Source: Antitrichia curtipendula
Lineage: Eukaryota; Streptophyta; Bryopsida; Hypnales; Leucodontaceae
Reading direction: 5' to 3'
Assembly (NCBI GenBank): GCA_951230915.1
Contig: OX579641.1
Coordinates: 558,001-622,000 of the forward strand
DNA: 64,000 bases
The first letter of the stretch is position 1; the number at the start of each line of letters is the position of its first letter. A model generated the notes under the pieces. That model searched no databases, was not told where the DNA came from, and was given only the letters and a program-made list of their open reading frames with translations. A program made the position numbers and the translations under genes. This document shows, piece after piece, positions 3,608-46,130 of the stretch.

Positions 3608-4180
3608 AGTCACTATCAATGGGGGCGTGCAATGCGTCCATTAATGGTTGTGAGTTGCCCAAGCTTTCTTGACACGATGATATCCTTGGAGGGATGACAA
3701 AGGATAAAGCAACAAAGGAAGTGGAGAACACCTTGACTAATGAAAGACCCGGTTAGGCAAATGTGCATATTTGCTAAACCGTAGAGTGTCAATTTTATTA
3801 TTATTATAAATAGAATATGAACAAAAAGAATATAAAAAAATAGAATGAATACATCAATGTGCTTCATGTGTAGTGAACTTCTAGGTTCATACATAGTAGA
3901 AAGTTCTACCTTGAAGTCAATCATTTGTAAATGTATTTTTTTTTCCATATAATATTACATACTTTTTGTCCTCTTATGTAGAAGTTGATTTTATATTTCT
4001 TACTTTTGAGTATTTTTCCTTGAATGTTTTTGGCGTTGACAAATAAAACTTTAATAATTTCAATTATATTTGTAGATTTGCCTTCATTTATAGTTGCCTT
4101 CAATAACTATCATTGAAATAAAGCCCCCTAAAAGTGCGCTAGCGATGTTTTAATTTAAGCATTTTGTTTCAATTTAATGA
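3608..4180. other. AT-rich spacer, nothing recognised
   Basis: No gene, RNA or repeat boundary recognised. The sequence is AT-rich with short A/T runs, and open frames are short and unlike known proteins. Confidence 0.5.
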
Positions 4181-7790: not shown

Positions 7791-10444
7791 TCAGTATTTC
7801 CCTTTCAAGTAACCAATCACGCTGTTGACATCTTTGTCACCACGGCCACTGCAATTGAGGACCACTCGTGTGCCATCAGCTAGTGTAGGACAGAGCGTTT
7901 CCAAAAATGCCAGGGCGTGCGATGTCTCGAGCGCTGGGATGATGCCTTCCAGCTTGGACAACCTCTGGAATGCTGCAATATCCACAGAAAGTCCTCAAGC
8001 CACCAATGAGGTTACCAAGAATAGAATTCATCTGCAAATATTGTCTTCGGATGAACCAAGGGGAATAGAGTACTTAACAGATACGATTTCCATATGTAAC
8101 ATATAATTCTACAAAACTCGTGCCCAAGTTCCTACTGACAAACTCAATTTTACAAGCATTGTCTACAGAAGGACATACTCGATCCGCAGAATCACTCTGA
8201 TCATGCGAGTGTTATAGACCAAACCATATTCTGTCAAACTCAATGAACTGTAAGGCACCTTATAAAGATTACTCTGCAGCTCATTAAACTTTGCCTCCAA
8301 TGCAACGTAATCGTAAGGTGCCAAATTCATCAAAACACATGAGCACACTACATACAACAGCACAGCCAGCAGAATTAAAATGATAACGAGAGCTTTAATT
8401 CGCATACCTTCCAGGGCTTCATCGTCAGTCACGCTAAAGTATTCAGCGCGACCCACGTCCTTGAGGAAGCTGTGTTCTGGACCAACCCCTGGATAATCCA
8501 ACCTGAGCACCACAAATTCTGATCAGTATATGATACATGGAACGCCAGTAATAGGATACCCACACAGCTCGTCGCAATGAACTAGTGAAAAGGTGTGACG
8601 CAAATCCTACTTCCGTACACTACCACTTCTACAGACGATGGAAACTATGAAATCCCACGAACCCCCATGAAATTAACCAACAATGTGAGCAGCAACTATC
8701 CAACAGCAGAATGCAAACGGTACAGAATGACCAATTCCCAAAGTTGGGTTTCCGAGTATGGCTTACCCAGCACTGATGGAATGTGGCTCAATAATCTGAC
8801 CATCAGCGTCCTGGAGCACATAGCTCATGGCACCATGGAGAACACCGATTTCGCCCATGGTCAAGGTCGCAGCATGTTTGTCGGTATGAGTACCGAACCC
8901 AGCGGCTTCCACACCGATGAGACGAATGTCCTCATCTTCAACGAATTCGTGGAACAATCCCATGGCATTTGAGCCGCCCCCGACGCACGCAAGAAGGACA
9001 TCAGGCTTGCCGCCCCACTTCTCCATGGCTTGACGTCGAACCTCGGTTCCAATCATGGCGTGAAAATCTCGCACAATCATCGGGTACGGGTGCGGTCCGG
9101 CCACAGAGCCCAGAATGTAGTGAGTGGTTTCCACATTCGTGACCCAGTCGCGAATAGCCTCCGAGGTCGCATCTTTCAAAGTAGCGGTGCCAGAAGTTAC
9201 AGAACGCACCTGTATTGCAAGCAGAACCCACCCTTCATGAAATCAAAACTATCGCCGGACCGCAGGACCACACGAAAAGATCGGACCGACAGGCCACGAG
9301 ACCTCACAAGGGCACCGCAAATATACGAGAGTTCCCTTCCCTACCTATCAAGACAAGCCTTCTGAAGCAAACATCTATCAATAGCGTTCTGTATATTATT
9401 AAACGTGGGACAAATGTTGTTCAGTCCTCCCCGCCCCCCCCCCCCCCAGCCGATGAGCGCAGAGAACGTGCACAGAAAATTGCAATGCAGACTGCCATCG
9501 ATCGATTCAGTCTCAGTTTCACGTCCTACGCTACAGAGTTCATACCTCAGCTCCAAGAAGACGCATGCGGAATACATTAAGGGCTTGCCTCTCCATATCC
9601 TGCGCACCCATGTACACGATACACTCCAGGCCGAAGCGAGCACACACTGTAGCAGTAGCAACACCATGCTGGCCTGCCCCCGTCTCAGCAATGATGCGCT
9701 TCTTTCCGATCCGCTTGGCCAACAACGCTTGGGCAATGGCATTGTTAATCTTGTGAGCACCCGTGTGATTGAGATCCTCCCTCTTGAGATATATCAGGGG
9801 TCCTTTCCCGTTACGTTTGTAGTGCTCCGTAAGACGTTCCGCGAAGTACAAAGGAGTTTCCCTGCCCACGTAATCCTTCAGCACGGCATTGAGCTCCTTC
9901 TGTAAGACCCAAATAATAATGATAGAAATAACTGTCAGCTCCAGCACTGGGACGTCTCTGCAAGCGAGAAACATAAAAAGACGTGCACAGCTCATGCAGA
10001 GGTCAGCACGATGATTCCAACCTGGAATTCGGGATCTTTGATTGTTGCACGATATGCGACCTCCAGATTGGAGAGAGCAGCCATGAGAGTCTCAGGGACG
10101 TACTTCCCTCCATACACACCATACCTCCCAAAGGAATCCGGGCGCTCGAATCCCTTGTACGTTCGAATATCGTCTAGATCCCTTGTGTGCACCTCTTCCG
10201 CCAGGGCGCAGCGCAGCTGCTGCCGCCCATAAGCCTCTGAAGCTTCCGCTTTCCTGCCACACACATCGCGTGCCACCACGCACGCAGCCCCATTCATGGA
10301 AGAAGATAGAACGTTCATCGAAGAAAATAGAGCGTTCATCTTCGTCGACGCTCTGGCTTCCTTCGCTGCCCAGGATTTACCTACCCCCTCACCTGTAGCA
10401 ATAGCGCTAGCCGCTTGGCCTGGTGCCACCGCCGACATGGCCAT
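7791..10444 (-). CDS. TRPB: Tryptophan synthase beta chain, plastid type
   Basis: Five minus-strand exons, 10022-10444, 9546-9899, 8767-9209, 8408-8502 and 7791-7972, all GT-AG, give 498 residues ending in TGA. The enzyme condenses indole with serine to make tryptophan, using pyridoxal phosphate, in the last step of the pathway. Visible landmarks are [20 protein letters not shown], the PLP lysine in HTGAHKINN (about residue 191), [14 protein letters not shown], the phosphate-binding GGGSNAMG, and SGRGDKD near the C-terminus. The first 90 or so residues are rich in Ala and Ser and lack bacterial counterparts, as expected of a plastid transit peptide. The protein would act in plastid stroma with the alpha subunit. 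The start is the ATG at 10444; a second Met follows two codons later. No lesion is seen. Confidence 0.95.
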
Positions 10445-11189
10445 AATTGATAGCCCTCTAGGTCACCTTAAGTTTTCAAATGAAAAACAAGTCTTCTGAA
10501 AAGAAAAAGTGGTATCCTCAGTCCAGCAGCTTACCCTACACGGAACGCTCTTCACACGAAACAGAGAAGTGGAAACCCTCCACTGAAATGAAAATTCAAT
10601 GCGTTCTTATAACCCCGAAAGGGCCTTCGCTTTCTCCAATCTCCAACCGTGAGCCTCCAATGGCGATGATTGAATCCCAACCCCAAGCACCCAGAACAGG
10701 AGAGTGCGGGGGATTGCAACCTCGACCTAAACTGAAAACAGAGACCCGAAGTCAAGGACCGCCCCAATTTGGCCCCCAAGCGGATTCTGCCCCACAAATG
10801 TCGATTCAACGTGTGCTGGTACGACCCGAGGGGCGAAGCTTTGCTGTGTGCGACGGGTCTAGATGAGGTTTCGGTGGGTTTGGGGGAGCTTCAGGGAAAG
10901 ATGACAGACAGACGGAATGCCGCACGGAGGCCTGAGAGATAATGTTATAAACCCTGAATTGCCGAGGCTACCCACAGTAAGTTTTAAAATCAGGTAAGGC
11001 ACATTCGGGCGTTTTCACAAGACTTTTTTAGTGGCAGAATCTGCGTCAAGTGCATAGGGTGAGGGCAAAATTGGCCATGGCGCGCCTATGGACTCGCCTT
11101 ATGACTACTTACAAGCCAGAATCGGCCACAGCCAACCCTTTCCCTAGTACGTTATGGCCCTACTTGCTTGGCTCCTCTGGCAATTTTAA
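10445..11189. other. TRPB upstream region, no other gene seen
   Basis: Probable 5' UTR and promoter of TRPB. It is more GC-rich than the surrounding DNA up to about 10930. The one open frame on the plus strand (10480-10866) has a low-complexity, Pro/Ser-rich translation without a known domain and is antisense to the likely leader, so I do not call it. Confidence 0.45.
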
Positions 11190-16690: not shown

Positions 16691-18121
16691 TGCTCGCCCT
16701 CCTCCTCCAAAAAAACCAAAACAAACCAAGAATATTAAATCCTATTCCACAAAGCAAGATTGAGAAATTCAAAATAGATTTTTTTGAGGAAAATGCGCTT
16801 CATATCAATGAACTCTCTACTATATTAATGAATGAACAACTTACTGACAACCAGTGGCAAACATCATGTAGATTATCTAATAAATAGAATATCAAACAAA
16901 ATTCAAGATTCATGTAGTGCCCCACCCCTCCTTCATTTGACAAACCGCACTACACAGCAAGGAGGTTTTCTTCCTAGAAAACTTCAAAAGAAATGGAAAA
17001 TCTACATTTCTACATACCATCTAATTCGAAAAGCAATATATATTGTAAAAAATAATCCATATTGGCAAACGCACCCGATTATTGCAGAACTACAAACACA
17101 CATACATGTAAATATCCCACCACCTCCAAATCAAAAACCAAACCAACAAGAATGGATCAATATAATAGCAATACTAGCAAAAAATGCAAACTTAGAGGCC
17201 CGCAAAATAACTTCAAAATACACGCGGGAATGTGTCAAAAAAACCATCTCAAAATACAGACAATTATACAAAAGAAGCCCCCAAAAAATAAACAAAAAAG
17301 TTTTAAAAAATCAAGAAACACCTCCACTAGATTGTATTATAGACAACAACAATAATATCCTAACTAATCCAAAAGACATAGCAACAAAAATACACACCCA
17401 ACAATCCATTAGTAATAGGCCTACAATTCCAACATGCTACTACCAACCTGATCACCACCCAAGTTGCACTTGTGGAGTCAGACAATATCCATGGCACAAT
17501 CTAGATGGATTTGTTATAGATAAAAGAGGTGAACCTCAAATATCACTATACAAATATTTCGACCAAAACACTTATGATATTTGTTTAAGAAACTTAGCAA
17601 ATAATAAAATGCCAGGACCGGATAAAATTCCTAACTCAATTTTAAAAAATATGCCTGACTGTTTTCATAAACTTCTTTATAAATTTTTCACACACTGCTA
17701 CAAACAAACAAAGATTCCATCAAATTGGAAAACAAGCCTAACCATACTTCTCTATAAAAAAAAAAATCCCTTGCAACTATCAAATCACAGACCAATTGCA
17801 CTAACAAATACAATATACAAATTCTTTACAAGTACCCTAACATTAATACTATCACAATATGGTGAAAGGCACCAAATCTTACATGATGGTCAAGAAGGAT
17901 TTAGACTTGAAAGAAGTACATCTAGACAACTCCAGCTTTTAATAGCAGCACTAGAAGATGCAAGATTCACAAATCAAGATATACACCTAATGTATATAGA
18001 TTTTAAAAATGCATTTGGTTTCCTTGATCACGCAAGACTATTAGCCATAATTAAAGATCTCGGATACCTAGAAGATGCAGTAACTCTAGTCGGAAATATC
18101 TACTCTCAATCTAACACCATA
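16690..18121 (+). pseudogene. LINE reverse transcriptase, N-terminal half
   Basis: After another frame change, 16832-18121 carries the front half of a LINE reverse transcriptase: NNKMPGPDKIPNSILKN, PSNWKTSLTILLYKKK, NHRPIALTNTIYKFF, DGQEGFRLERSTSRQ and YIDFKNAFGFLDHARL, the last being the first catalytic-Asp motif. The frame is cut by the MULE at 18121/18122 in the sequence coding for SNTI and resumes at 33290. A Cys-rich CTCGVRQYPWHN segment precedes the RT core. Confidence 0.85.
18112..18121. repeat. Target site duplication, left copy
   Basis: TAACACCATA immediately before the MULE terminus; identical to 33280-33289. Joining the LINE across one copy restores the RT reading direction (SNTIYTGEH). 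Confidence 0.93.
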
Positions 18122-18167
18122 CAGCGGTGCTAGATTGTGAGCTTGCGAGCACGAGCCTATGAGCGTA
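18122..18167. repeat. MULE left terminal inverted repeat
   Basis: 46 bases pairing with 33234-33279 at 39 positions. Built from repeated TGAGC/CGAGC units. A close relative ends the remnant at 3607. Confidence 0.9.
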
Positions 18168-18279
18168 GAGCGGGGATTATGTGAGCGGGGAATTCTGAAA
18201 TTAGGAAAAATTCAATAATATTTCTAAAAATAGAAAATATATTAAAAATTATAAATTTTTTTATTATTTTTAGTAAATT

Positions 18280-18405
18280 TTAATACCTATTACCGTGGAC
18301 CTATTACCATGGACCTATTATCATGCATATATAAGCGTGGGGCTATTATTGTGGGGCTATTATTATGAACCTATTACCCAGGACCTATTACTATGGTTAT
18401 GTATA
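18280..18405. repeat. MULE subterminal repeats, left
   Basis: About seven degenerate copies of CTATTACCGTGGAC in direct order. The inverted form (GGTAATAGGTCCACGG) recurs near the right end at 33110-33165 and in the remnant at about 3390-3425. Such subterminal repeats are candidate transposase-binding sites (inference). Confidence 0.8.
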
Positions 18406-20150
18406 GTTTAATTTTCAATATTGTCAAAAACAATAGAAATATATATTCTGAAGGCAAACAAGTGAACTACATGAAAATGCAAATTGAGAATGAAAACAGG
18501 TTGTATTAAATACTCCAAAAAATTACAGTATTCGTCCAAATAGAAATTGGTATTTCTAAAGCTTCATATTTAACTTCAGCCTTTCAATCTCAGATGTCAA
18601 TCACTTCAAGTTTGATGGTCCTCTAGGCATGTTGCAGACTGTCGTCTGGAACCTTGATGATACCGGCCTTCGTAAGAAGAAGCTTCACTTCATCGAAGCT
18701 GAAGCTTGGAGAATTTATAAACTTATCGTCTACTGGATTCATTTTGCAGAAGTAACGAAATAAATAGTAAAGATGTTTGCAGTTCACGTATTGATGACGT
18801 CCACCAATTGCTGAGACGGCCATGTCAACAAAATCGGGACAAGTACATTCCGAATACATGCCAAGTGTGATGCGATAAACCTTCTGGTGGGGCTCAGTTC
18901 CAGACTGAAGGGAGATTATGGCTCCAATTCCGGGAGAGGGGAGCATGGTTACTCCCAAGATTGATCCTTTGACATTACCAGCACTCTCCCATTTATTGCG
19001 ATGCTCTGTAGTAGGAGCATTTGCAATACGTCGAATCGCTTTGCTCCTTCGAGTTGTTGGATATGCGTCCGCATGCAAAGGACTTGGCTGATCATATAGA
19101 ATCACATTGAAGACATTAGACATCATGAACAAATGTCGAGGTGATATAGGTGGCCTCTGTTGGAGCTGAAATCCGGCCTCTTGCAGCAGCAATGTTTCGT
19201 GGCGAGTCAAATTGGTCCCAGTTAATACAGGCCACACATCTGGTACTTAGGGCCAATCAATTACCCAACCGCGTTTTGAGCCTTGTACACATCGTTCAAT
19301 ATCATCTGGACAAAACCAAAAGTCGGTGATAATCTCCTTGTTTCCGCCATACTGTTTTTTTCTACCACGATATGTTGGAGCTGGAGTGCCTTTTGACCCC
19401 TTCGCAATCTTGGCAACGCAACGGATGTTAGAACTTCTTTGCTGCGCATGACATTTGCAGCTTGACTTATGCGAAATTCGGGCAATATGCCACTGTGAAA
19501 TGTCACAATCGCTCTCCATGGCTGTTGTCACATGTGGTACCTCATCAGAGTTTGCGAGTGTGTCTATTTCATTAGAGGCCGCCGCAGGTGTACGTGTAGA
19601 TCGTGTCTGCACTCGTGGCTGGGAGAAGTTAACCTTGTCGGGACGGTGAGAGTCACCATCCAATCCAATGGGAAGGTCAAGCTTGCGCTTACTACTACCA
19701 AATACTTCTTCGCCTTCCAAATGAGGAATACGAGTTGTAACTTCCGTCGCTCCAGGAAGGCAATTCAATGCCTCCGCAATCTTTTTTGGATCTCCACTGC
19801 GTCTAGCGCCTCTTAATTTCAACTCCTCTTTAGATGGCCCCGACCTTGACGAATTACCTTTTAGAAAAGCCTGGTAATTTGTCATTTGCATGAAAGCTCG
19901 AATGCAATCATCGGAAGTGGCTGCAAACAAATCATTACCTCGGTTACCGGATTGCTGCAACCATTTGTTGTGAATTGTTTCGGATAAGTTGCATGATGGC
20001 ATGTCCGCCATTTGTTCTACACTTAAATCCTGAAAAAATAAACATAAAAACTGAGAATCAAGACAAATTCAAAGAAACAATGGAGACTGTCACAGTTTTT
20101 GTTCTGACAACTTAAAACAGTTTTCATCATTCCTATATGTAGCCAAGTCT

Positions 20151-20168
20151 CCCCTCGGCGCCGAGGGG
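20151..20168. repeat. Palindrome copy 1, CCCCTCGGCGCCGAGGGG
   Basis: Perfect 18-bp palindrome in the transposase intron, flanked by a second inverted pair GCCAAG / CTTGGC three bases outside, so it could form an extended hairpin. Confidence 0.95.
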
Positions 20169-20276
20169 AACCTTGGCAACTATCTTTAGTGATGTACATT
20201 GCTTTCTAGTACCAAAATAATTACAAAAGCAAGTACAATGAAATTGCATACCATCGTAGAGTTGGTTACAACGGAA

Positions 20277-20372
20277 CAATAGAAACTTTGATCACTCGTG
20301 GTAGAGGCCAAGGCTCCCCTCGTAGGCGAGGAGAGCCTCACCCACTACCTGGAGTGATCAAAATTTCTATCA
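20277..20372. repeat. Long hairpin around a degenerate palindrome
   Basis: Outer arms AGAAACTTTGATCACTC and GAGTGATCAAAATTTCT enclose GGTAG/CTACC and an inner CCTCG-TAGG-CGAGG. This gives a nested inverted repeat of about 95 bases within the transposase intron. Confidence 0.8.
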
Positions 20373-22679
20373 ACAAGTGATAATCACTCACAAAAAAACA
20401 CTGTAATAGAAGGAAATTGGATTTAGAAGAAAGACATTATAAGAGAAACCACATAGAGCAAAATACCATTTGCATGAAGCCACCCCATTGACGATATCGG
20501 AAATGCCAAAACGCAAGCCACAACTCTAGTTCCCGCATAGCATCTTCCGAGGCTGCTCCAGATGATAACCACCAGGATCGAAGCGCTAAGAATCGAGTCT
20601 CAGCTTCATCCATAGACTTGGAGTCCTTGTACTGCTTGCAGAGACGAATATGTTGATGCTGCAAGTCCGGTTTGATGAGCTTCTGCGTATAGCGATGCAT
20701 GGACGTACTCCAGTGTAGAAGACAAGTTCGCTCACGATTCAGCATTTCATCTTTTGTATTTCCAGTACCGTAAACAGTGCGAACGGCATTCCAATTTGCT
20801 TATGCATTGTCCGCCATGAAGCCCTTGAAGTTTGTGTTCTCCACGCCATTGAATTTCATGACATTGTTCAATAACCTCCAAAAGATGCATTGAATCTCCG
20901 TGTCTTTAGATTGCATGTCACAGACAGCAATTGTCATGACCTTCCTGCAGCCTGTGTCATAGACGTGGCAAGCCATTGTGGTCCAGTCTTTGATGCGTTT
21001 GACGTGATCAAACATGATCCATGTTTTCTCCAGATTTCCGCTGGGTTGCATGCAAGTGACCAAGTCCACTCCACTCCCTGGCCCTTCTACCAACATTTTA
21101 AACAAATAAACTTTTGCCTTTCCTTGACTGGGAAAGACACTGTCATGAATGTACTCAAATCTCAAATTCCGTTTCATATTCATGATGTTATCTATGACCC
21201 CACTTCTGCCACTAGTACGAAACGAAGAAATAACATTTCGTATGTTAGGAGAACTAAGTATCTGGAACTTGTCCATCACATCCTCTAGCGAGTTCCCCCG
21301 CAACATTTCCTTAGGTCCTTCACCATTATGTATGAGGTGATTGTCTAGAAACTGTTTACTAGCTGCTAAGGCAATGGCAGAGTTGGTGGCACTAGGGGTT
21401 CTTGAAACCACACTTGCAATGAGACTGGAAATCGTATTTGAAGACTCTCTACACATTTCTAATGCTACAGGATGCACGTGATTCCCTAAGTGAATGCATG
21501 CTCTAGTCAAGTGTGTAGTATCACCAAAAACGTAATATATTCTAGCACTACATGTACTAACGCAATGCGGCGGATATTTGCATATCTTGCATTGTAGAAA
21601 TGAATCTTTCGGAGGGATCGTGCCAACATGAAATGGAGCGGGTGTATAACCACACCACTCAGTCTCATTCCGCTTCAAGGACCGCTTTAAGTAATCGCAT
21701 TCGGAGTTGTCACATACAAGATGGCCTGCACAGGAAGATTTTCTAAACTTCAGGCCATCTTGGTTGTTGATATTGGACGTCATGGTACGACACCATGCAT
21801 GTCCATCGTATCGTTTATCCATGCCCTGTAAGTTCCCAACAGCGGATGATGAAGATGAAACACGAAGAGAAGGCAACTCGAATAGTACATCTCCATCAAA
21901 ATCTGCAGGAAAGTATTGCACCTTCTGATGGATGACTGAGTCGTAGTCTAACGAAGCAATTTCGTTTCTAGATCCACGAATCGCTGCTAGCTTCCATAGG
22001 CATCCAACGATGCTAATTGCGGGTGTACTACTCGGATAAGTTGGCGGCTGAGAGTGACTGGACACAACAGGACTATTAGACGAAGTTCGATATATACCAG
22101 ATGGTATCTTCAAGACATCATCAGAGACTCTACTAGGAAGTGTTGCTTGAAGACCTAACTGGCCAGGAGACTCTCCCTCGGACTCACTAGATATATCTAT
22201 GACCGGGTCAAGAGGTTCTTGCTTTACACAGACAAGTTGAACAGGAGTATCAGCAATCGGAATATGATTGTGGTCAATAGTTTCTTCAATATCATGGTGG
22301 GAATCAGGCATGTTCACTGTAGAGTATTCAGACTGGCGAGCTAAAATCTCAGTGGAAGCTACTCTCACTTCAGACATCAAACCGTAAGCTCAATAGCGCC
22401 CTCGATAAAGGTGCCAGACATGACCATCCTCAACCACTATTTTTGGTATATAGACAGACTCCTTCAAGAAGCCAGAATCAGACATAACCTCTTCCTCAAC
22501 ATAGATACTGGATTGGACAAAACCGAAGCGAACATGAAGAAGATGTGAAGATACTACAACACATCCATCATCTCGAAGCGGAAGTACTAGTGGTATCTCG
22601 TGGCCATCCGCTCGAAGGGAGGCCATTGTCCCAGAAAATGAGCACAACAATAACAGGAACAGTATCACAAAAAAACATT

Positions 22680-24029
22680 GACCTCAATGAAAGATTGAAC
22701 TAAGGGATTGAACAAAACACACTACATGGATATATGAATGACATCAAATTGAAATTCAAACCCCAGAGAATAATGCGGCGTCATTACTTTCCCTCAATAC
22801 AAAATACTGACAGTAATCCCGTAGTTAATGTACCTTAAACCGGCAATCAAATCGTTATTTATATTGTTAAGAGATGCGTCATTGCATACAACATTTGGAT
22901 AATTGTCGCAGCAGGGGTGGTTTAGCTTTAGATTGTAATAACTATTGAAGAATAAGCCGTACGAAATTGAAAGTTTTACTGGAGATGGATCCCTTCAGTA
23001 TAATCATATCCCTCATTATTCAAAAAATTACTAAATACATTCTTATATTTAAAAGTCAATTTAGCTAATTTGTCACATTCCGGCTTTAAGGGTATTAGTA
23101 CTGTGTGACCAGCACATTAAGTGATCTAGACCTGAAATTTCTATGGTCTATTCCCACACTAGGAAGACATGTTCCTACCAAGTGGAATTTAGAAGTATTT
23201 TATGTTATGTCCTCCACCTTTGTGAAAATAGAGCTCCCTTGCGCGCGCACTTTTGAACATACAATACGGTTCCAAGTTTATTCTTATATTGAAATCCCTA
23301 CACCATAAAGTTATTCCAAATGGCTTATTCTTAGAATCTTTGAAAATTATGTTTCCAATCTTTTACAAATTAAAACGTCCAAGTATCTATTTTCTGTCGA
23401 TTCTGCACTTTTCTATATCTCCTATTTAGAATTTTTTCTCATGCTATTCCTTTCTAGGGCACCGTCTTCTTATCATAGTATACATTGTCCATATTATAAA
23501 TATTATTATAAAAATGATATTCTATTTTATAGTACTCCCAAAAAAAGTCTGTAAACTGCCAAAGTGGAACAGAAATAGCAAGTCATTCCTGCAATCACCT
23601 AGAGAATACCTGTAAGTCTGGCTACCTAACTATTGAATGTGACAAGGTTGACGCCTATAATAAATTCTCTTTGATAATGTATCTAATTTTTTGGTGGCGC
23701 AATGAGATATGGACGATCACGTTACTGTTGCAATCTCATATCCAAGGTACTATAGTGTACAAGTAATTTGAGAGAGCATTTATGGGTACACATTAGGTAA
23801 ACCAATAAGAGTCGTTTCTGTTAATCTGCTATCATATGTAAGAATTTCTATATTGAATTAGACATTTACATGTGCTTGCGAAAATCAATGTTCTCATCGA
23901 AACGGCCATTACGTCTACAACATCTAGGCATTAGTCACAGTGCAACAACTATAGCAACCACTCAATGTCTCAAACGATAAGCCCTCCTAGAGGATTCAAA
24001 ATACCGTCGTGTGTCCATAATGATAAGTG
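22680..24029. repeat. Spacer holding a dispersed repeat (about 22930-23600)
   Basis: The stretch between transposase and the small plus-strand gene. From about 22930 to 23600 it aligns in the same orientation with 49400-50090 in the CACTA element. Both contain GATCTAGA(C/T)CTGAAATTTC, TATGGTCTATTCCCA and GCTCCCTTGCGCGCGCA. No coding sequence is recognised. The 49361 copy has clear termini; here they are eroded. Confidence 0.7.
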
Positions 24030-24760
24030 ATGGACGGTGAAGCTCACATTCCATTCCATCTTGCTCAGTGTTATTCCGGATTATGTAGTGTTAGTCTTAT
24101 GCTTACGCCAGACGGTCTAACCGATGGTGGTTCTGTGCATAGCTTTAGGAAGAAGAGGAAGAGTAGAAAACTCCTATACTCTTCAAGGAAAGAATTGCAG
24201 CGGTCAAGGAATAGAGGTTCTAAGGTTGATCTACTTTCTAAGTCGCTACCAGTTGGAGACTCTACACACATTCAAATTCAAGAACGTGAACAAGCTGGCG
24301 TTCTTACAGACGGGAGTGAAGTGAAGGTAATGCACATTGTGGAGAAGCCGCCGAAGTATTCTACCTTGGAAGCAACGCCGTACAATTCAGTAAGTAAATC
24401 TCTCTCTGCACAACCTATGCAATGCTATTTCCTTTGTTTATGATGAATTCTGGATTTGAACTATATGGTCCGCAGATAACGCGAAGCCAATGTTATCTCG
24501 ATGTACCTTTGAATCATGGACTGATTACACTCAAGGTAATCAATTAACTTCCAGGCATTCTAAAAATCTATAAAATCTAATCCTTGATTTATTCTGTTCA
24601 GTTTAATGTATAAGCATTACTAAAATAACATTGTTCACAGCCTGGGATATATAATAATTCCATTTACCATATTTCACTAGAGACCTTACAAATTGGGACC
24701 GTATCGGACGGTCCAGTATCATCTTCACTAGACCCGCTCGTGTGCTATTGGGAATCATAA
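24030..24760 (+). CDS. Spliced MULE-borne protein of unknown function, 179 aa
   Basis: Three exons, 24030-24389, 24476-24535 and 24641-24760, have GT-AG borders and all keep phase 0, ending in TAA. I recognise no family. The N-terminal part has a basic cluster (RKKRKSRKL), which could be a nuclear signal. Later come EVKVMHIVEKPPKYSTL and CYLDVPLNHGLITLKPGIY. It lies between the transposase (opposite strand) and the ParB-methyltransferase gene, with about 400 bases to the latter, so both could be expressed in the same direction. The model rests only on phase and splice consensus. It could instead be the N-terminal part of a larger transcript. If TAA and TAG were sense codons the frame would run on to TGA at 25046-25048. 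Confidence 0.5.
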
Positions 24761-24876
24761 ATGCAGTGGTTCAAATATGGTCCACGTCGTATATTTACGG
24801 TTCAGGGTGCAGATGACCTTACGGGATTTTGGGTTTAGGGTTAAGGATCTCAATATAACTCACCGCAGAGAGTGAT

Positions 24877-25041
24877 GCTGGTTTGCCAAGCCCCGCAAGA
24901 CGGCACCGCCGCGAATACACTCTTGTGCGCAGCTGGTTTGCCAAGCCCCGCAAGACGGCACCGCCGCGAATACACTCTTGTGCGCAGCTGGTTTGCCAAG
25001 TCCCGCAAGACGGCACCGCCGCGAATACACTCTTGTACGCA
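24877..25041. repeat. Tandem repeat, 55 bp x 3
   Basis: Three nearly identical units starting GCTGGTTTGCCAAGCCCCGC at 24877, 24932 and 24987. GC-rich, in the presumed 5' region of the ParB-methyltransferase gene. It could hold regulatory sites (inference only). Confidence 0.95.
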
Positions 25042-25495
25042 GCTTTGAATTACTCCATGCCGGTAGACTGTGCTTAGATAGGGTTTTGATTTCGAATGCA
25101 CAGTTGATTGTTTGAGTACTTACCTAATTCGTGTTTCGTTGCACAAGCTCGGAGAAATGGCGAGGAGACCGGCTACGAGAAGTGTAGCAATGGGGCTGCA
25201 GGGAAACGACGGAGATGGAAGCGGAAGCAACGACAACGCAGTTGAAGAAGTGGTGGCTGACGTCACGGCCTCTGCAGCAGCTCCAGCCACTGAGGTATCT
25301 TTCCAAAACCCTTATTTCCAAATGTTGTGTCGTGACCGAAATTTTAGGCACCGATTTGAAGAGGACAATGGCTTGTACATGATCAGTAACTGGAACTTGG
25401 GGTCGGTAGACAGATTGAGAAAATAAATTTACCTTATCGGGGCGGCCCCCAGGCGCCAAGCAGAATTCGGATCAGCTGTGGCTTTGTAGCCTCAG

Positions 25496-25511
25496 CCCTC
25501 GGCGCCGAGGG
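25496..25511. repeat. Palindrome copy, CCCTCGGCGCCGAGGG
   Basis: Perfect 16-bp palindrome, first of a series in intron 1 of the ParB-methyltransferase gene. A degenerate relative lies at 25899-25916. Confidence 0.95.
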
Positions 25512-26291
25512 AAAAACCCACGCCCTAGTATTTAATCCAATGAACCCTGGATTCGAACACCGCTTGACTTCGTTACTCCAGTGTATCAGTTCATTGCGAT
25601 TCAAATTTTTTGCTTGCTTCAGCGCCTAGGGGTTTGGTCTTCCAATTCCACTTCTCATTTCAACAGTCACGACTAATTCTAACTACTTATTGATTTCAGA
25701 AATGCATTTGAGTTGGTCGGGGAAAGTAAACAGGGCATCAAAGCATCCGGAGGAGGTCCCTTGACGACATTTGAGGGTCTCGGAGGGCAAGGATAGAAAA
25801 ATTTAATAGGCGATTTTCTACTGTTATGTTACAGTTAGTTTCTAGATAGGCAGCTCGTAGAGGAATTGTTCATATCAATTGAAACCTGTCCGCCCCTTCC
25901 CATCAGCACCGAGGGGAGGATCTCGGCCTACAGGTTTGACGTCCTATTTCTTAAGAATCTGATTATCGGAGAACTAGAAATAACAATCTACACCCTATAA
26001 ACTCAGATTACGTTAATTCTGTCCCAAATGAAATGTGACTTTATATTGCGGTACGGTACCGTATTTGTTTGTATATTTTTTTGAATGCAAGTAAGAGTTT
26101 CTCCCTGGTTCAAAAGGCTATATGTGAAACAGTAAGTGCCGAGGGATGTTGACGACTTCAATGGTTGCAAATTGTAAGACGCTTAGATTGTCGTGCCCCG
26201 CATTGTCGTGCCTTGCATTTCCGTGCCTCGCATTCCCGTGCATCGCGGTGTCGGTCCAAGAATTCCCAGATCAAAAAGTAACAGAACCTAG

Positions 26292-26313
26292 TTGCCCTCG
26301 GCGCCGAGGGCAA
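26292..26313. repeat. Palindrome copy, 22-bp perfect form
   Basis: The 16-bp core CCCTCGGCGCCGAGGG extended by TTG / CAA, giving 22 perfectly palindromic bases. Confidence 0.95.
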
Positions 26314-26423
26314 GAGAATGGCAGATCGTCTTGATCTTCTCGTGTCGCCAGCACCTCATGACCAAATTTGGAGAGCGAACTATTTCGTAAAAAATTTTAA
26401 ATGGTCAGCCCCTGAGGTTCTCA

Positions 26424-26433
26424 TCGGCGCCGA
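26424..26433. repeat. Palindrome core copy, TCGGCGCCGA
   Basis: Ten-base core with the right arm complete (GAGGG) and the left arm changed to CA. Confidence 0.9.
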
Positions 26434-26674
26434 GGGTATGTCCAGTGTCTTGCCCGTTTGATCTGTTCTGGAAAGTTGCAGCTTTGTGTCTGTCGTAATG
26501 CTTGTGGACATTACTTAGTGACATGTAGAATATCTCGGGTTTTTGAGGTTTCTTCTTTCTTAAGCTATATGTTCAGGAACATTCCTGGCTTACTCCTCAA
26601 TTTGCTCATTGTGAACACCATCTTATCAGATATTTCGTTGTGGTTAATCTCGGGTCAAGACGTATATGTATTCA

Positions 26675-26684
26675 TCGGCGCCGA
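26675..26684. repeat. Palindrome core copy, TCGGCGCCGA
   Basis: Same form as the copy at 26424, CATCGGCGCCGAGGGTA. Confidence 0.9.
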
Positions 26685-26842
26685 GGGTAGGGGTGGGATG
26701 ACATGGGGTTAATACAGTACATTAATATTAGTTTAACATCTTCTACAATCTATACTAGCTAATTTTCCACCTTCTAATATCCTCGGTGTTGAAGTTGAAC
26801 TCCATATTTGTTATTTTAGTCAATAGAGGACTACTGGTCTCG

Positions 26843-26862
26843 TACCCTCAGCGCCGAGGGTA
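26843..26862. repeat. Palindrome copy, one mismatch pair
   Basis: TACCCTCAGCGCCGAGGGTA, palindromic over 20 bases except for one position pair. Confidence 0.92.
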
Positions 26863-27417
26863 TGTGTGTTGTGAGTTCGTTCTGATCGTAGAACTATGGT
26901 AGGTCTTACAAGGGCATATGTAATTTCATTCATGAGTTCGCACTTCCTGTATGATCTTGAAATTCACGAAATACATTCATCTACTTGGAGATTAGGAACG
27001 TTTTATCATACTGATTTAAGCAATTGAGTAAGTCGTAATGTGTGTAGTAATTCACTTAGGTTTGACATGCAGTTCATGAAGTAATGTTTTCTCTTATTTG
27101 AATTTAGCAGTGCCATTCTGGAAATTCGTGTTGTTGCGTTGTCCTTCCTGGGTATGAGAATAAAGGTAATTTGTCTATGCTTAATCTGCACCTATCCATT
27201 TGAATTTATCTCGGAACGTTATGGTGATGTAGTAGCTTGAAAGAAACTTCCTGCCCTGCATTTAACAAAATGAGCTCCCGAACTTGGGGAAGGGATTTCT
27301 GTCCCATGTTATCATTATAGCATATTCGGTACTGGCTAGCAGTTATTTCGACAAGTTCAATTTCGGGAATCCTTCTCTATGATTAGATATTGATCTGCAG
27401 AGTTCTTCTTAGTGCAG

Positions 27418-27433
27418 CCCTCGGCGCCAAGGG
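27418..27433. repeat. Palindrome copy, CCCTCGGCGCCAAGGG
   Basis: One mismatch from the 16-bp consensus. Confidence 0.92.
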
Positions 27434-27684
27434 TACTATTGTGGACATGAGGTCTTGACTGAATACTAACGGGATGAGCTGAATCTGTTTAATTGGATGT
27501 GTGTTCTAATTTGAATGATTCTCCAGTTCACCTCCATAGTTCTCGTGGTGACTGACTAATTTCATTTTGTAAGCAAATTCTGGTTTTCCTAGCTAGATAC
27601 TATTGTTTGGAAGTTGTAAATATTGCTTGGTTTTTTGTTTCAATTTCGTTGACCTCTATCTGTGGGGCTCTGCTCCAGGGTTTC

Positions 27685-27698
27685 CCTCGGCGCCGAGG
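27685..27698. repeat. Palindrome copy, CCTCGGCGCCGAGG
   Basis: Fourteen perfect bases, 80 bases before the splice acceptor of exon 2 of the ParB-methyltransferase gene. Confidence 0.93.
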
Positions 27699-30600
27699 CT
27701 AGTTGTTGGGCCGTCCAATTTGGTATCCTCTCATTCATATACTTCACTTTATCATTGCATTTTCTGTTTTCTATTCAGGTGGAGGCTTGTTTAGAACAAA
27801 TGGAGACTCAATTTGTTTTAGAGCGTGTCACCTCTGGAGGTGGAGTTCCGGAGGGAAACTCAATTGACCAAGACATGGAGGAGACCGGAGAGGAGTACAA
27901 ATCCGAGGACGCGTTTAGGAGAGCACAGAAAGTCAACTCCGTTGCGTCCATTGCCGAATTGAGATTAAAACCTCATTCCATATCTCGGCTAAGGATCCCA
28001 TTGTGCCGTCTTGCTTCAATGCCAATGGTTAGGCCTGCGCTTCAGTGTGATCTCACGAAATTGGAACAGGAGTTCGTGCACGGCTACAGAGATGGATCGT
28101 GCGTTTTTTATGTGTCAGTTACTAACGAGCAGGGTGAGACTGAGCAGGTGTCTGATGCAGAAAAAGAGGCATGGGGACCATTGTGGAATGAAGAAAACGA
28201 GATCTTCAACTCCCACCTCAATGCAACTCCAGGATTGCATCATTTTCAGAACTCCAAGTTCTTCGTCTGTGATGGTAACCATAGACTGCTGTCATGGACT
28301 TCTTATATTAAGAAGCACCATGGCCTCGACAGAGATTGGCATATTTCTGTCGATTCCATAGTTCTTGAGACGAAGGGAAAGATTGGTGATGTCATGCACG
28401 CCATGCACGACATCAACAAGTAAGTTCATCATTTCATTGTATATTTTTTTGGTTGTCCTCTGTTATTATTTAGGTACAATTTAACGACTTCATTTTATAT
28501 TGCAGGCATACAGAAAATTCATTCATCAAAACTAGCCTTGTTCACACGTTGTATCGTGTTTGCAAGTACGGGCTGTTGCCATTGGAGAAGTTCTATGAGC
28601 ACTTGAGTGACACTGAGATGACCCAGTGCCAAACAAATCTTCGAAAGAGTTGGTACTCGATGTCGGTTGAAGTCTTCACTTCATTTATCTTCCGGGTAAG
28701 TAGAGTCATTCAACATAATCTTTTTTTTGTTTTTCTATTGTATTTTGCTCAAAGCATTCTATATCGGAATTAACTTATGGTTATGTTGTTTCCAGTACAA
28801 GATAGCGGCAGCATTTGATGTTGCTGTTAGGCTCTACAAGGAAGAAACACCGGAGGAGGATCAATCAGAGGAGGGCGTCTTGGCTGCTATGAAATTAGGT
28901 ACAAAGGAAAAGACATCGAAATTGATTCAGAAGTTGGGGAGTTAACAGCCGTTGCCAATCCCAATCTTGGAAACGAATGGCTTCAAGAGGTATGACGACA
29001 TTGCCTACAATCACATTTTTATGTTCTTCTCTTATCATATACTCGGACCTCTAACTCCATGTAACTTGTGCTTCAGATTGAGCGTCACTGGAGCTCCAAC
29101 ATCACTCCGGAAATGACCTTGGAGAAATTGCAGTTGATTGCAACTTGCAACGTTAGCCGGGAACAAAAGGTGAAGTGGTTGCGTTGGTGGAATTCATCCA
29201 TTCAAACCAGAGAAGCAAGGCGCTTTCCATTGAAGCCAGTAGGAGAGACTGAGTTAAGGTCCTTCTTGGCAAAGGCCTACTGGTATGCAGGGGTAAGTAC
29301 TTCCCTTTCATTTTTTCTATTATTTAATCATATCATTGTCGTATTATGTAGTGCATGACGTTGTGAAATGCTGATTGCAACGGAATCTTGCATTGTTTGC
29401 ATATGTCTAATTACCTCATATGATTGCACAGATTGAAGAGGTGGGAATTGAAATGTTCGATAACATTGTGAAGAAGGACCAGCTCACGTTGTCAATGGAC
29501 TCTCCCCAAGAGCCTGACAACTTTGCAGATTATATTGAGGCATGGAGAATTCGAGTCTGGAACCATGCATTCTTGACTCAGTTCCGAGGACACGATGTCT
29601 TCAGGAAGTCGGATGACTTTAGAAAACACAAAGGCTCCGATCTTGTTGTCAAACGTGTAGTTTACCGGTACGACTTCCATTTCGTGTTGTCACTGCGGTA
29701 TGCTTATTTAGACTTGTCAATTTCTGACCTTGAGGCAATATTCCTTCTCACTTTCTATGCTTTGTACAGGTATTTTAAATATGAGCTGCTACCAAAGGGA
29801 GCAATCGCAAAGCGTGACCTACCTCCTTTTCTTGGAACGTGGCTAGATGTCTCTTCCGAGCACTGCATGTTTTCACCGGCGCAATTACGTTGGTAGACGA
29901 GTTCGCACCTCAAATCCGGTGCATGGTATTTAGATTGTCCACCGGAGTTCACGCCACTGCCTGAAGAGCACATCAAGCAGGCGATCAACTCTCATGAGGT
30001 CGTCGTAGAATTTGATGAGTTTGCCGACCTTGATGATGATGCGAAGGCCAAAGCTATTAAGCGGAGAGAGGAGTCTGACAAGAAGATTGCATTGAAGAAC
30101 TTGGAGGCGGTGGACAAGGCCAAGGAGAAGATCACCAGGAAAGCACAAAAACTTGTTGAGACAGAGAATGCACCAGCAGCGGAGAAGACCAAGGGAAAGA
30201 AGGCAAGGGAGCAAATTCCGCCTTCATCATCAAAAGATGAGGGCTCCCAGCACCAGCGTTCTGTCTCGCGTCGCACCAAGCGTGATGCTCAATATGCTTC
30301 CCTCAGCGAAGAGGGAATGCAGCATGGGCCATCAGCTGTGGAATATCTCAATGACTCAGAGATTTCCATCTCTGAGTTCATTGTCAATTACTCTCTTGCA
30401 GATGTAATTGCTGATCCTCTGCCCAAGGTGTATAGTGACATCCTAGATTTCATTGATAAGGTTAGCAGTTATACATGCCTTTCACCTTTTTTTTGTGATT
30501 TGGTTCTTGAGCTTTATTACTCTGTTTTGAGCTTCAGTCGTCTGACCTTTAAAAATCTGTTGCAGCACAAAGGGGACAAGCAGCGCTTCTTCAAAGGAGC

Positions 30601-32163
30601 CAGAAGTGATAAACCGCGGATTGACCTGATTATTGCAGACATGCCAGAGGGTTTGCCGGTCCCAAATTTGTCGATGCCTGCAACCAGCGTTCCAAAGTGG
30701 AATATGGACACACCTTCTTGGTTAGAGGCAATTTTTGAGTTTGCGGATGGTCATCTACAGGATGATGGAGCTCTAATTGTTATTTATCCCTTGAGGACCA
30801 TTACGAAGGCTACTATTTTGAAGTATGGTAGTACATACTCTTTTGAGAAGATGAAGGACTAGTGGGGAATGAATTGGTTACATCTAGCCTTGCCTGTTTC
30901 TACTTCAAGAACGGTATATTCATTATGCATTTCGATTTCAAACTCAGTTATTTCCTATTATTGTTTTTGGGTGAAGTCAATTTCCTTAATAGTTCAATTT
31001 TGGCATTGTCAGTTCTACCGCAATGTACTTTATGTTTCCCGTTATTTTTGAATTGTATGCCTCTACATATTTCAGTCTATAATGATTTTTAGAATAAGCT
31101 TGTAGTTTATGTCTATGCATTTGTGATGGACTGATTCTCTCCCTATCTCATCATTCTTGCAGACACAACACTTTGGCATTATGCTGTTGGTGAGGAACTT
31201 GCCTGGAGTTGGTCCTTCTAAATTCAAATTTCAACCATGCCCAAGGCTGAAGGAATTAGGGATAGATGTAGCTGTTGATGATGTTCTTCAGAATTTCACA
31301 AAGAAGGAGACTTTGACCATGGACAGCAAGTTCAACCTTTGGAGAGGGGCCCGAGAGAAGGATCCCCGATTCCTTCAGATGTTGATAGAGGCATCAACAC
31401 TTCCCAATGACGTTGTTATCGACTGCACTGCTGCAACAGGTCATTCCAGTTGCCTTTACAATCTAATTTTTGTAATCTAGATTTTCATATTCTCTTTTAT
31501 TCCTTATGAATGCTCTAGTAACTAAATTTTTTCTGTTCTTGGGATTAGGAGCCTCCATCCACGCTTGTAGGATCCTCAGCAGGCACATTGTTGCACTTGA
31601 AGAAGATAAGGCAATCTTCGATGCAATTTTGGCCCCAATGATTCGCTCAGTTCTAGATGTTTCAACATCAGCTGCAATAGTCATACTAGGTTCTGACGAT
31701 GAAGATGCAGTGGAAGTTGAAGTCCCACACATCGTGAAGAAATCTCGTTTCAGTAAGTAAGTCTATCCAAGCTTGCATTTTCTTTCCCAATTGATATGTG
31801 TAGTTCTAATCCATTGTTTATGTTTCCTTTACCTTTATGATATATGTTTGTTTTATCAAAAATGTGATATTCAATCCATTTCTAATAATCTATTTTTTTT
31901 TTGGCAGCATGATCTCTAATGCGGCAACTCATCGTCCCTTCTTCACTTTACCTGGATTTTTCCCAAGCCCAGAGAAGTCCTTTGTGTTGCCATTGTATGT
32001 AGAGGCTTTACCTTCGACATTTGCCTCTCAGAGACATTTTCCTATACGGAAGAAGTCTAAAACTGTAGACCCTAAAGTTCTGCAGTTTGTAGATGAGACA
32101 GCCCTAGAGGCAGAGGAGGAGACTTCATCCACTGATAGTAGTGACCACTCTCACTCTAGGTGA

Positions 32164-32630
32164 CTCTATTTCTAATTGCTATGCAGTTGTTTGATTTTAT
32201 TTCATCGTTTATTATATGTTGTTTTCTGTCATTCCATGATAAGTATCTCCTAAATCCAAATCAACGACAAATGATTATATGTTGAACTTCATATCACTTG
32301 GAAGTACTAAAATTTAAAAATTAAACCCAAATTTTGATTTAGAATAGAAACCGCATTTTATAAGCTATATTGCACTAGTTGGACCAAAATTTGGAAGGCA
32401 TCATTTTTATGGATGAAATTCACATCATCAGTTAACAACAATAAGTACCTAGATATTACTACAATGGTGATTTATTTGAAATCGAATGAGGTTGATCTAT
32501 TCAGATTTAGATTTTTAAAATCAATTTTAGTACCTACATACTAACATGAACCTATTCCCGTGGATTTTTAGATGGAATTGTATGCTCACAGGATGACAGG
32601 CTCACGGTCACACGCTCACAGATTAGCAAT
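32164..32630. other. 3' flank of the cargo gene, no gene seen
   Basis: AT-rich, presumably the 3' UTR and terminator of the ParB-methyltransferase gene. Nothing else recognised. Confidence 0.5.
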
Positions 32631-32634
32631 TCTG

Positions 32635-32778
32635 CCCTCGGCATCGAGGAGAACCCTTTAGCACCGAGGGGGAGCCCCTCGGGGCCGAGGAGAGCTTCCC
32701 AACGCCCAAAAAAGTAAACAAACACTGATAAACACATCATTTCCCCCCTCCTTGGGAACTCCCCTTGGCCCCGAGGGG
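32635..32778. repeat. Cluster of degenerate palindromes downstream of the cargo gene
   Basis: CCCTCGGCATCGAGGA (32635), CCCCTCGGGGCCGAGG (32675) and CCCCTTGGCCCCGAGGGG (32761). A further partial copy, CCCTCGGAGGATGGG, lies near 32950. Confidence 0.85.
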
Positions 32779-32796
32779 AGACCCCAAGCAAAAGAA

Positions 32797-32882
32797 AATT
32801 AAAAATTAAAAAATTAAAAAATTAAAAAATTAAAAAAAAAAAATTAAAAATTAAAAATTTTAAAAAAATTTTAAAAAATAAT

Positions 32883-32911
<29 letters not shown>
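32797..32911. repeat. Low-complexity (AAATTAAA)n and (TA)n tract
   Basis: Irregular AAAAATTAAAA repeats followed by about 13 TA dinucleotides. Confidence 0.95.
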
Positions 32912-32913
<2 letters not shown>

Positions 32914-33107
32914 TTATTTATTTATTTATTCTTGTTTGCTTGAGGGCTGCCCTCGGAGGATGGGAGCCAAGCAACAAAATAAAAGTGATTATAAAATTTT
33001 TAATTTAAATAAAACAAATTTATTCGATTTTAAATAAATTCTAATTAATCACCACTTTTTTTCTTCAAATCTAAAAATGTCTAATAAATAGTACATCAAG
33101 GTTGTTC

Positions 33108-33168
33108 AAAGGACCATGGTAATAGGTCCACGGCAATAGATCCACGGTAATAGGTTCATGGAAAAAAT
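33108..33168. repeat. MULE subterminal repeats, right
   Basis: Three copies of GGTAATAGGTCCACGG-like sequence, the inverse of the left set at 18280-18405. Confidence 0.8.
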
Positions 33169-33233
33169 TACTAAAGTTTACCAAGCATAATAAAATTTGA
33201 TCAAATTTTTTTGATGAAAACTTATAAAATTTG

Positions 33234-33279
33234 TACGCTCACAGGCTCATGCTCGCACGCTCACAAAATAGCAACCCTG
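33234..33279. repeat. MULE right terminal inverted repeat
   Basis: Inverse of 18122-18167; read inward it begins CAGGGTTGCTATTTTGTGAG. Confidence 0.9.
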
Positions 33280-33289
33280 TAACACCATA
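33280..33289. repeat. Target site duplication, right copy
   Basis: TAACACCATA immediately after the MULE terminus; identical to 18112-18121. Confidence 0.93.
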
Positions 33290-44611: not shown

Positions 44612-46130
44612 TGGGTCCAGCTTGCGCTTGCTAGATCCAAAGACTTCCTCCCCTTCAAAGTGAGGCATACATAGGCACCACTCTTTAGCAAAAGGCATAC
44701 TCTGTATTGCTTCCACAACCTTTGCGGGCTTCCCCGATCTCTGGGCAAGGCAAAGTTGCAGCCCCTGCTTCGAATGTCCATTACTTGAACGCCCTCCTTT
44801 CAAAAATTGGAAGTAGTTTGTGCGCTGCATGAATGCATGTACGAAATCATCTACTGTAGCATCGTATAAATCATTCTCTTTATTGTCGGATTGTTGGAGC
44901 CACTGGTTGTGGATTGTCTCTGCCAGATTGCAAGATGGCATCTCTGCAAGTTCTTCATCGGTGAGTTTCTGTGCCACCCCATTCAAGGTTAGTCAAATCA
45001 GTTGTCGGATCCGAAATCTGAAACAAGCAGAAATGACAGGGGGTCAGAGGTATCTTACCAGCTGCATAGAGGCTCTCCATTGCCAGTAGCAATAGTGCCA
45101 GAAGGCGAGCCACTGGTCAAGTTGCTTCACTACTTCATCATTAGGTGCCCCGCAAGATTGCCATCATGCTTGAATTGCAAGATATCAAACCTCAGATTCA
45201 GCGGACGTCTTGGAATCCTAGTATTGTTTACAGAGTAGGCAATGCTGATTTTGGAACTCGCTCTTGATGTACTTGTCCATATGGCGATTCATGGAAGTAG
45301 TCCAATGAAGGAGGCAAGTGCGCTCTCAATCAACCATAGCCTCTTGCGGGTCACTTGAACTGTAGATCTTCCTTACAGCATTCCAATTTGCTCCTGCACT
45401 ATCCGCCATGAACCCCTTAAAGTTGATGGAAGCGAACCCATTTTTTGCCATGACTTCGTTGATGCCTTTCCACATGAGACATTGGGCCTCGGTATCTTTT
45501 GATTGCATGTCGCAGACTGCAATCGTCATCACTCTACAATAGTGGGAGTCATATTAATACATAACATGCCATAGTTGTCCATTGTTTGACCCGCTTGACG
45601 TGGTCAAACATGAGCCACGCATCTTGCAAGTCTCCGCCAGGCTGCATCCTCATCATAAGATCAACACCGGATCCAGGGCCAATCTCGCTCATCTTGAAGA
45701 CAAAGACTTTATCCTTATCACCCCCTTGCCCAGGGAACATATTCTTTTGGACAAAAGGCCAAGTTGTACATCCTCTCATTTGCCGGTTGCCATCCATTGC
45801 CTCAGTGCATCCCACCTGTTTGAAGGAAGAAATGACATTCTTGATGTTTGGAGAGGCAAGATTGGCATACTTCTCCATGACATCCTTCATATCGTCCACG
45901 GTCATGGTCTTTTCTGATTCTTGGGGCCGAAGTAGATATTCTGCAAAGAATGATTTACTAGCTGCCATGGCAATAGCAGAATTCATACCTAATGGGTTCC
46001 GCTCCATGTGCTCGCCCAACAAAGTATTGATCTTTGCCTCAGACTTTGGACAAATTCCAAAAGCAACATGATGGTCATGCTTACCCATGTGCACACATGC
46101 ACGAGTCATCACCGAAGGTCTTTGGACATA
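44612..46130 (-). pseudogene. MULE transposase fragment (second lineage), target of the CACTA insertion
   Basis: The minus strand encodes relatives of the 18590-22626 transposase: VMTRACVHMGKHDHHVAFG, GPGSGVDLMMRMQPGGDL, MFDHVKRVKQWTTMACYV, NFKGFMADSAGANWNAVRK, then after a gap AEMPSCNLAETIHNQWLQQS and EEVFGSSKRKLDP. Similarity stops at about 44612, before the SWIM finger, and upstream coding is cut at 46131 by the CACTA element. Frame breaks occur near 45180-45330 and 45545. Sequence divergence from the 15-kb element shows it is a different subfamily. Confidence 0.82.

What the first reader, a model, noticed from the sequence alone, without database searches (positions are those of the whole stretch)
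25157..32163. ParB-like domain plus beta-class DNA methyltransferase as cargo of a plant MULE
An 11-exon gene with consistent phase encodes CDGNHRLLSW (ParB/Srx signature) and, 580 residues later, a methyltransferase with motif IV before motif I (IADMPEG ... DCTAATGAS). This pairing is known mainly from phages and bacterial mobile DNA. Here it has plant-type introns and sits inside defined MULE ends. I infer ancient transfer into the nuclear genome and domestication by a transposon, perhaps to modify its own DNA or evade silencing. Seen: motifs, exons, boundaries. Inferred: function.
Basis: partly seen in the sequence, partly recalled or inferred. Interest (0 to 1): 0.92.

Follow-up and report, generated by a model that had tools for sequence, protein, structure and literature searches.

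The report
Transposon carrying ParB-fold methyltransferase gene
A 15-kilobase jumping gene in what looks like a plant genome carries a second gene, broken in this copy, that joins a bacterial-type ParB fold to a DNA-methyltransferase fold; similar genes were recently noticed in algal transposons, and a palindrome shared with a distant relative hints at where such a protein might dock on its own transposon.

The parts
18112..18121 (.). target site duplication TAACACCATA, left copy
   Evidence: identical to 33280-33289
18122..18160 (+). left terminal inverted repeat
   Evidence: 32 of 39 positions match the reverse complement of 33241-33279; related end at about 3605 beside a transposase relic, 72% over 221 bp
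18285..18396 (.). left subterminal 14-bp tandem repeats (8 copies); transposase binding region by inference
   Evidence: inverted counterpart 33121-33153, relatives at 3385-3435
18623..20029 (-). transposase gene, C-terminal part with CxC...CxH (SWIM-like) finger; in-frame TAA at 19247-19249
   Evidence: no Pfam hit
20470..22389 (-). transposase gene, N-terminal and DDE-like part; in-frame TAA at 20800-20802
   Evidence: relatives in window at 44615-46109 (-) and 1993-3149 (+)
20154..20165 (.). palindrome CTCGGCGCCGAG in the transposase intron
24877..25044 (.). 3.1 tandem copies of a 55-bp unit, 113 bp before the putative cargo ATG
   Evidence: not elsewhere in window
25157..25294 (+). putative exon 1 of the ParB-methyltransferase gene
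   Evidence: open frame plus donor, phase 0 into exon 2; no homolog support
25295..27778 (+). large intron 1 (or upstream region) with 9 of 16 hits to CCTCGGCGCCGAGG (up to 3 mismatches); 7 of the 12 hits to CTCGGNNCCGAG (up to 1 mismatch)
27779..28419 (+). exon 2: ParB/Srx fold, CDGNHR (GxxR) at 28268-28285
   Evidence: 401 relatives E<=0.01; A2; fold; L001 exon E=1e-44
28506..28695 (+). exon 3
   Evidence: P0004 reads across the exon 2/3 junction
28796..28989 (+). exon 4, with change of frame at about 28870-28900
29077..29292 (+). exon 5
   Evidence: matched by L001 and L002, 43% over 76 residues
29432..29667 (+). exon 6
   Evidence: aligned to P0001
29770..30460 (+). exon 7, in-frame TAG at 29894-29896
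30566..30913 (+). exon 8: methyltransferase, motif IV DMPE at 30638-30649; in-frame TAG at 30860-30862
31163..31439 (+). exon 9: motif-X-like WRGAREK and start of motif I, DCTAAT
31549..31756 (+). exon 10: GASIHAC..RHIVALEEDK, rest of motif I and acidic residue of the SAM site
31908..32163 (+). exon 11, end of gene
32636..32776 (.). three palindrome copies (1-2 mismatches to the 14-mer) in the right subterminal region
33241..33279 (-). right terminal inverted repeat
33280..33289 (.). target site duplication TAACACCATA, right copy

Best explanation
This is a decayed copy of a large two-gene, MULE-like DNA transposon. Shown: its second gene, on the strand opposite to the transposase, encodes a protein of roughly 1,100 residues with an N-terminal ParB/Srx fold and a C-terminal amino-methyltransferase fold; both parts lie in the same order in an independent, diverged and intact locus; the methyltransferase part is under purifying selection there; and a palindrome CTCGGNNCCGAG is repeated in non-coding DNA at both loci. 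Inferred: it is an accessory protein of the transposon. The ParB fold, with its GxxR nucleotide-site motif, would load the protein on the element, most likely at this palindrome, much as ParB loads at parS; the methyltransferase half, with D-x-P-E in place of D/N/S-P-P-Y, would then mark or occupy the DNA and so counter silencing or aid transposition, as VANC does for VANDAL MULEs by another route. Accessory gene of this kind: about 0.88. Self-directed docking and marking: about 0.55.
Against: This copy can make neither protein whole. None of the 135 single proteins held spans both halves; the join rests on the gene models here and in L001 and on the published cases. The two other transposase relics in the window are truncated and show no cargo. 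L001 and L002 show no transposase match and no element ends were sought there, so they are not shown to be transposons. L002 has no palindrome hit, but it lacks the upstream stretch. The three L001 palindromes lie in one family of ~107-bp repeats, so they are one event. The aromatic residue of motif IV is missing in all 16, so the enzyme may be inactive. In the window copy a stretch matching PDS[RK]F..NE, present in 15 of 15 relatives, is replaced. In L001 the residue before DGNHR is W, not C.
Confidence: 0.82

Rival explanations
1. A host gene was captured once by the transposon (Pack-MULE-like) and has no role in it.
For: MULEs often take up host genes (PMC6446971, passages); only one copy with the gene is in the window; the copy is broken; L001 shows no transposase.
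Against: 401 relatives of exon 2, with clusters of up to 28 member sequences among the 120 listed; two diverged copies in one bin; same arrangement in Ectocarpus Sola1.
Confidence: 0.1
2. The protein is not an enzyme: the methyltransferase fold lost catalysis and binds SAM, DNA or partners.
For: Motif IV is DxPE in 16 of 16, without the aromatic residue; motif I is D-x-[TSI]-[AT]-[STGA]-T.
Against: Motif IV D, P and E and RG[AP]RE are kept in 16 of 16, the LE.D acidic residue in 3 of the 3 rows of A3 that reach it; purifying selection.
Confidence: 0.3
3. The ParB-fold domain is an enzyme-like module (Srx/SerK type) rather than a DNA-loading clamp, and the palindromes serve something else, such as transcription control or hairpins.
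For: DGNHR resembles SerK/SbnI/Srx motifs (recalled); these are among the fold matches. No DNA-binding domain was identified in the exons after it.
Confidence: 0.3

Closest known systems
ParB-methyltransferase accessory gene of Sola1-1_Ec32 (Ectocarpus) and cited green and red algal cases (PMC12477816; passages, outline, part 2 of section 5 and one part of the reference list seen; its refs 50 and 51 seen as list entries only)
   Same: one protein of about 1,100 aa with ParB-like and N4/N6 methyltransferase domains, in a giant DNA transposon, on the strand opposite to the transposase
   Different: here a MULE-like element with a 10-bp duplication in a probable plant; algal sequences were not at hand, so whether they share DxPE or the palindrome is unknown
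Phage and prophage ParB-N6_N4 methyltransferase fusions (PMC12704722, passages)
   Same: same pair of folds in mobile DNA; GxxR P motif
   Different: no match by tblastn in 50,697 phage and 72,556 plasmid records for either part; introns; DxPE
ParB-parS (bacterial; recalled, and PMC12704722 passages)
   Same: ParB fold and repeated short palindromes in the element that encodes it
   Different: no HTH domain identified, no ParA sought, binding untested, methyltransferase attached
VANC anti-silencing proteins of VANDAL MULEs (PMC10398659, passages)
   Same: second gene of a MULE-type element; target motifs repeated in the element's non-coding DNA
   Different: unrelated protein as far as known (recalled); removes marks
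DNMT-carrying retrotransposons of dinoflagellates and charophytes (PMC5890265, abstract and outline)
   Same: transposon encodes a DNA methyltransferase
   Different: C5-cytosine enzymes in retrotransposons; no ParB fold mentioned in what I saw
N4CMT of bdelloid rotifers (PMC8885841, passages)
   Different: host gene with SPPY and chromodomain that silences transposons

Membership tests
Transposon ParB-methyltransferase accessory proteins (as in PMC12477816) | ParB-like and amino-methyltransferase domains in one gene | tested here: met
   folds; gene models in window and L001; no transcript spans both
Transposon ParB-methyltransferase accessory proteins (as in PMC12477816) | inside a DNA transposon, strand opposite to the transposase | tested here: met
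   window; not tested in L001 and L002
Transposon ParB-methyltransferase accessory proteins (as in PMC12477816) | gene present in several copies of the element | not tested
   The genome search gave no answer in 19 tries; other relics in the window are truncated
Transposon ParB-methyltransferase accessory proteins (as in PMC12477816) | sequence homology to the algal proteins | not testable with these tools
   algal sequences not held
Canonical beta-class N6/N4 amino-methyltransferase | fold and motif order IV before I | tested here: met
Canonical beta-class N6/N4 amino-methyltransferase | [DNS]PP[YFWH] catalytic motif | tested here: not met
   DxPE in 16 of 16; no [DNS]PP[YFWH] anywhere in the 15 relatives
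Canonical beta-class N6/N4 amino-methyltransferase | Pfam PF01555 gathering score | tested here: not met
   25.1 bits against 26.7; 6 of 15 relatives match at E<=1, best 1.6e-4
ParB/Srx superfamily | fold | tested here: met
ParB/Srx superfamily | GxxR P motif (Box II) | tested here: met
   G166..R169 in 38 of 38, DGNHR in 120 of 120 and L001; definition PMC12704722
ParB/Srx superfamily | Pfam sequence profile | tested here: not met
   no ParB family among the 12 families matched by 38 members at E<=1
MULE superfamily | 8-11 bp target duplication and terminal inverted repeats | tested here: met
   10 bp, ~39-bp ends; definition PMC6446971
MULE superfamily | MULE transposase domain | tested here: inconclusive
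   no Pfam transposase or SWIM match; DDE-like and CxC..CxH patterns seen by eye

The most novel reading that the evidence does not exclude
A self-addressing transposon system: the ParB-fold half loads at CTCGGNNCCGAG, a palindrome that the element repeats through its own introns, upstream and subterminal DNA and that a diverged relative (about 32% protein identity) repeats upstream of its gene, as ParB loads at parS. The DxPE methyltransferase half, a catalytic variant that I have not seen described, then writes or occupies a mark there that host silencing cannot read. One such module would be shared by unrelated transposon superfamilies in algae and plants.
Probability: 0.3. Interest if true: 0.87.

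Novelty: new variant of a known kind. Interest (0 to 1): 0.66.

Why it matters
ParB-methyltransferase genes, so far noted in passing in algal transposons, appear to form a large, conserved, mainly unannotated family with introns, probably also in plants, with a catalytic motif unlike that of known amino-methyltransferases and a candidate docking palindrome. That makes 'does a transposon mark its own DNA?' directly testable by a binding assay and a methylation assay.

Tried and rejected
No relatives: viral contigs (P0001, ParB alignment, methyltransferase alignment), ParB alignment in prokaryote genome contigs, phage and plasmid tblastn with each part. The methyltransferase alignment found two loci in prokaryote contigs, both from one bin labelled a cyanobacterium; their GT/AG introns at the same places make me take them for eukaryotic contamination, an inference. 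PDB searches by sequence gave nothing relevant. PHROGs and NCBIfam gave, for the methyltransferase, only a 0.14 hit to a DNA methyltransferase family.

A changed genetic code was considered and dropped: transposase breaks are TAA and TGA as well, the cargo also changes frame, and the sister transposase has Q at the one stop site that I compared. Methylation-driven decay as the cause of the TAGs was dropped: the aligned residues in relatives do not point to one cause. A short intron as the cause of the exon 4 frame change was dropped by eye. Sola or KDZ for the transposase was not tested; recalled features of MULEs fit better.

The 14-base palindrome and the 55-bp repeat lie in the element only, apart from one 3-mismatch palindrome hit at 53475; one hit inside the element (30301, 3 mismatches) is coding. 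393 shuffled palindromes of the same composition gave at most 3 hits in the element. With 2 mismatches allowed, the L001 count (3) is reached in 17 of 200 shuffles; only the exact hits stand out. The letters CCTCGGCGCCGAGG are in no held paper.
Full report
Element. From 18122 to 33279 lie 15,158 bp of element, flanked by two exact copies of TAACACCATA; the inverted ends match at 32 of 39 positions. The element interrupts a LINE-like reverse-transcriptase frame, recognised by eye; Pfam gave no match for its upstream part. Joining the flanks keeps that frame open for 38 residues past the junction, then a stop follows. The left end is 72% identical over 221 bp to a sequence that ends at about 3605 next to a truncated transposase relic at 1993-3149; another relic lies at 44615-46109. 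No cargo match was found beside them (tblastn E<=0.01; profiles E<=1). Subterminal 14-bp repeats occur at both ends and at the sister end.

Transposase. On the minus strand two blocks (20470-22389 and 18623-20029) make one gene with in-frame stops. By eye it has a DDE-like region and a C-terminal CxC...CxH finger. No Pfam transposase or SWIM family matched, so 'MULE' rests on duplication length, ends and these patterns. PMC6446971 (passages) gives 8-11 bp duplications for MULEs and lists SWIM fingers for several plant groups.

Cargo gene. Read with X at stops this gives 1,083 residues without exon 1. Two in-frame TAGs (29894, 30860) and a frame change in exon 4 show a decayed copy. The first homology search gave one hit, P0001 (641 aa), among 7,986 candidates scored, a capped list; it aligns to the C-terminal half over 604 columns at 28% identity and carries across both TAG sites. 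A profile search of this half gave 15 proteins, P0001 included, again from a capped list. In all 15 the conserved frame ends or is interrupted at the place of the window's exon 9/10 border; P0001 and P0126 resume after it with GAS and GAT. I take this for a shared intron position. The window's introns after exons 7 and 8 are absent from all 15; the one after exon 6 is absent from the 12 that clearly reach it.

A second locus. L001 holds the ParB exon at 552-1181 (profile E=1e-44; about 32% identical to the window copy over 208 columns; WDGNHR in place of CDGNHR), then the methyltransferase exon at 2218-3861 and the last exon to 4158. The ParB exon ends with AACAA|GTAAGT as in the window. So the two halves lie together in a diverged, unbroken relative. 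L002 is 90.6% identical to L001 over 3,122 bp; over 548 codons dN is 0.030, dS 0.31, ratio 0.10 (Nei-Gojobori by my script). The methyltransferase part is thus under purifying selection. Introns argue against a cyanobacterial host; the real host is unknown. No transposase match was found in either.

Cis sites. CCTCGGCGCCGAGG has 16 hits with up to 3 mismatches in the window, 0.33 expected; 15 lie in the element (24% of the window), 14 of these outside the coding parts: two in the transposase intron, nine in intron 1, three near the right end. Flanks differ from copy to copy, so they are not one larger repeat. Among perfect palindromes of 12 bp or more with at least six G or C, the four longest in the window (22, 20, 16, 14 bp) are all copies of it. 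In L001, four ~107-bp repeats at 1-399, ending about 150 bp before the ParB exon, are each centred on a palindrome; three have the core CTCGGATCCGAG, the fourth has decayed. The common core is CTCGGNNCCGAG: 12 hits with up to 1 mismatch in the window, all within the element and one of them coding (29577), 0.46 expected; 5 exact hits, none expected; 3 exact hits in L001, 0.01 expected. I chose the core after seeing both sets, so these expectations flatter it. A scan without that choice, over all 5-base half-sites with gap 2, gives CTCGG as the only repeated one in L001 and as the most frequent not made of A and T in the window; by a rough count of mine such agreement has odds of the order of one in a thousand. 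The 55-bp repeats before the cargo start are a second candidate.

Host. It is not named. A tryptophan synthase beta fragment at 8763-9242, a CACTA-like element with DUF4218 and the intron style suggest a plant; the matches themselves do not prove it.

Known work. PMC12477816 describes in Ectocarpus a 21.5-kb Sola1 element with a 1104-aa ParB-like plus N4/N6 methyltransferase protein opposite the transposase, cites green and red algal cases, and proposes that such proteins bind and modify their own transposon. The finding is of that kind; I call it a variant for the MULE-like element, the DxPE motif and the shared palindrome, while noting that the algal proteins may share the last two. In nine paper searches that bear on this I saw no land-plant report and no mention of DxPE in titles, abstracts or the passages read; subscription papers are mostly not held.

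Noticed in passing
L001:1-4691, L002:1-3103: Two intron-bearing loci with the ParB-methyltransferase gene (L002: methyltransferase part) in a bin labelled as a cyanobacterium: probable eukaryotic contamination in a reference genome set.
   Followed up: partly
22938-23546 and 49427-50035: 617-bp stretch between the two genes of the element is 75.5% identical to a stretch in the CACTA region: probably an unrelated nested repeat.
   Followed up: no
24027-24443 (+): 138-codon open frame between transposase and cargo, possible third gene or relic.
   Followed up: no
32596-32634: Inner copy of the right inverted repeat, 82% to 33241-33279, 645 bp inside the end.
   Followed up: partly
20279-20370: Imperfect inverted repeat with 44-nt arms (82%) in the transposase intron, with a palindrome variant at its centre.
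   Followed up: no
47356-52456 (-): CACTA-like open frames by eye; DUF4218 match E=3e-33 at 48554-49378.
   Followed up: no
8763-10462 (-): Tryptophan synthase beta pieces; 8763-9242 tested, the rest by eye. May help to name the organism.
   Followed up: partly
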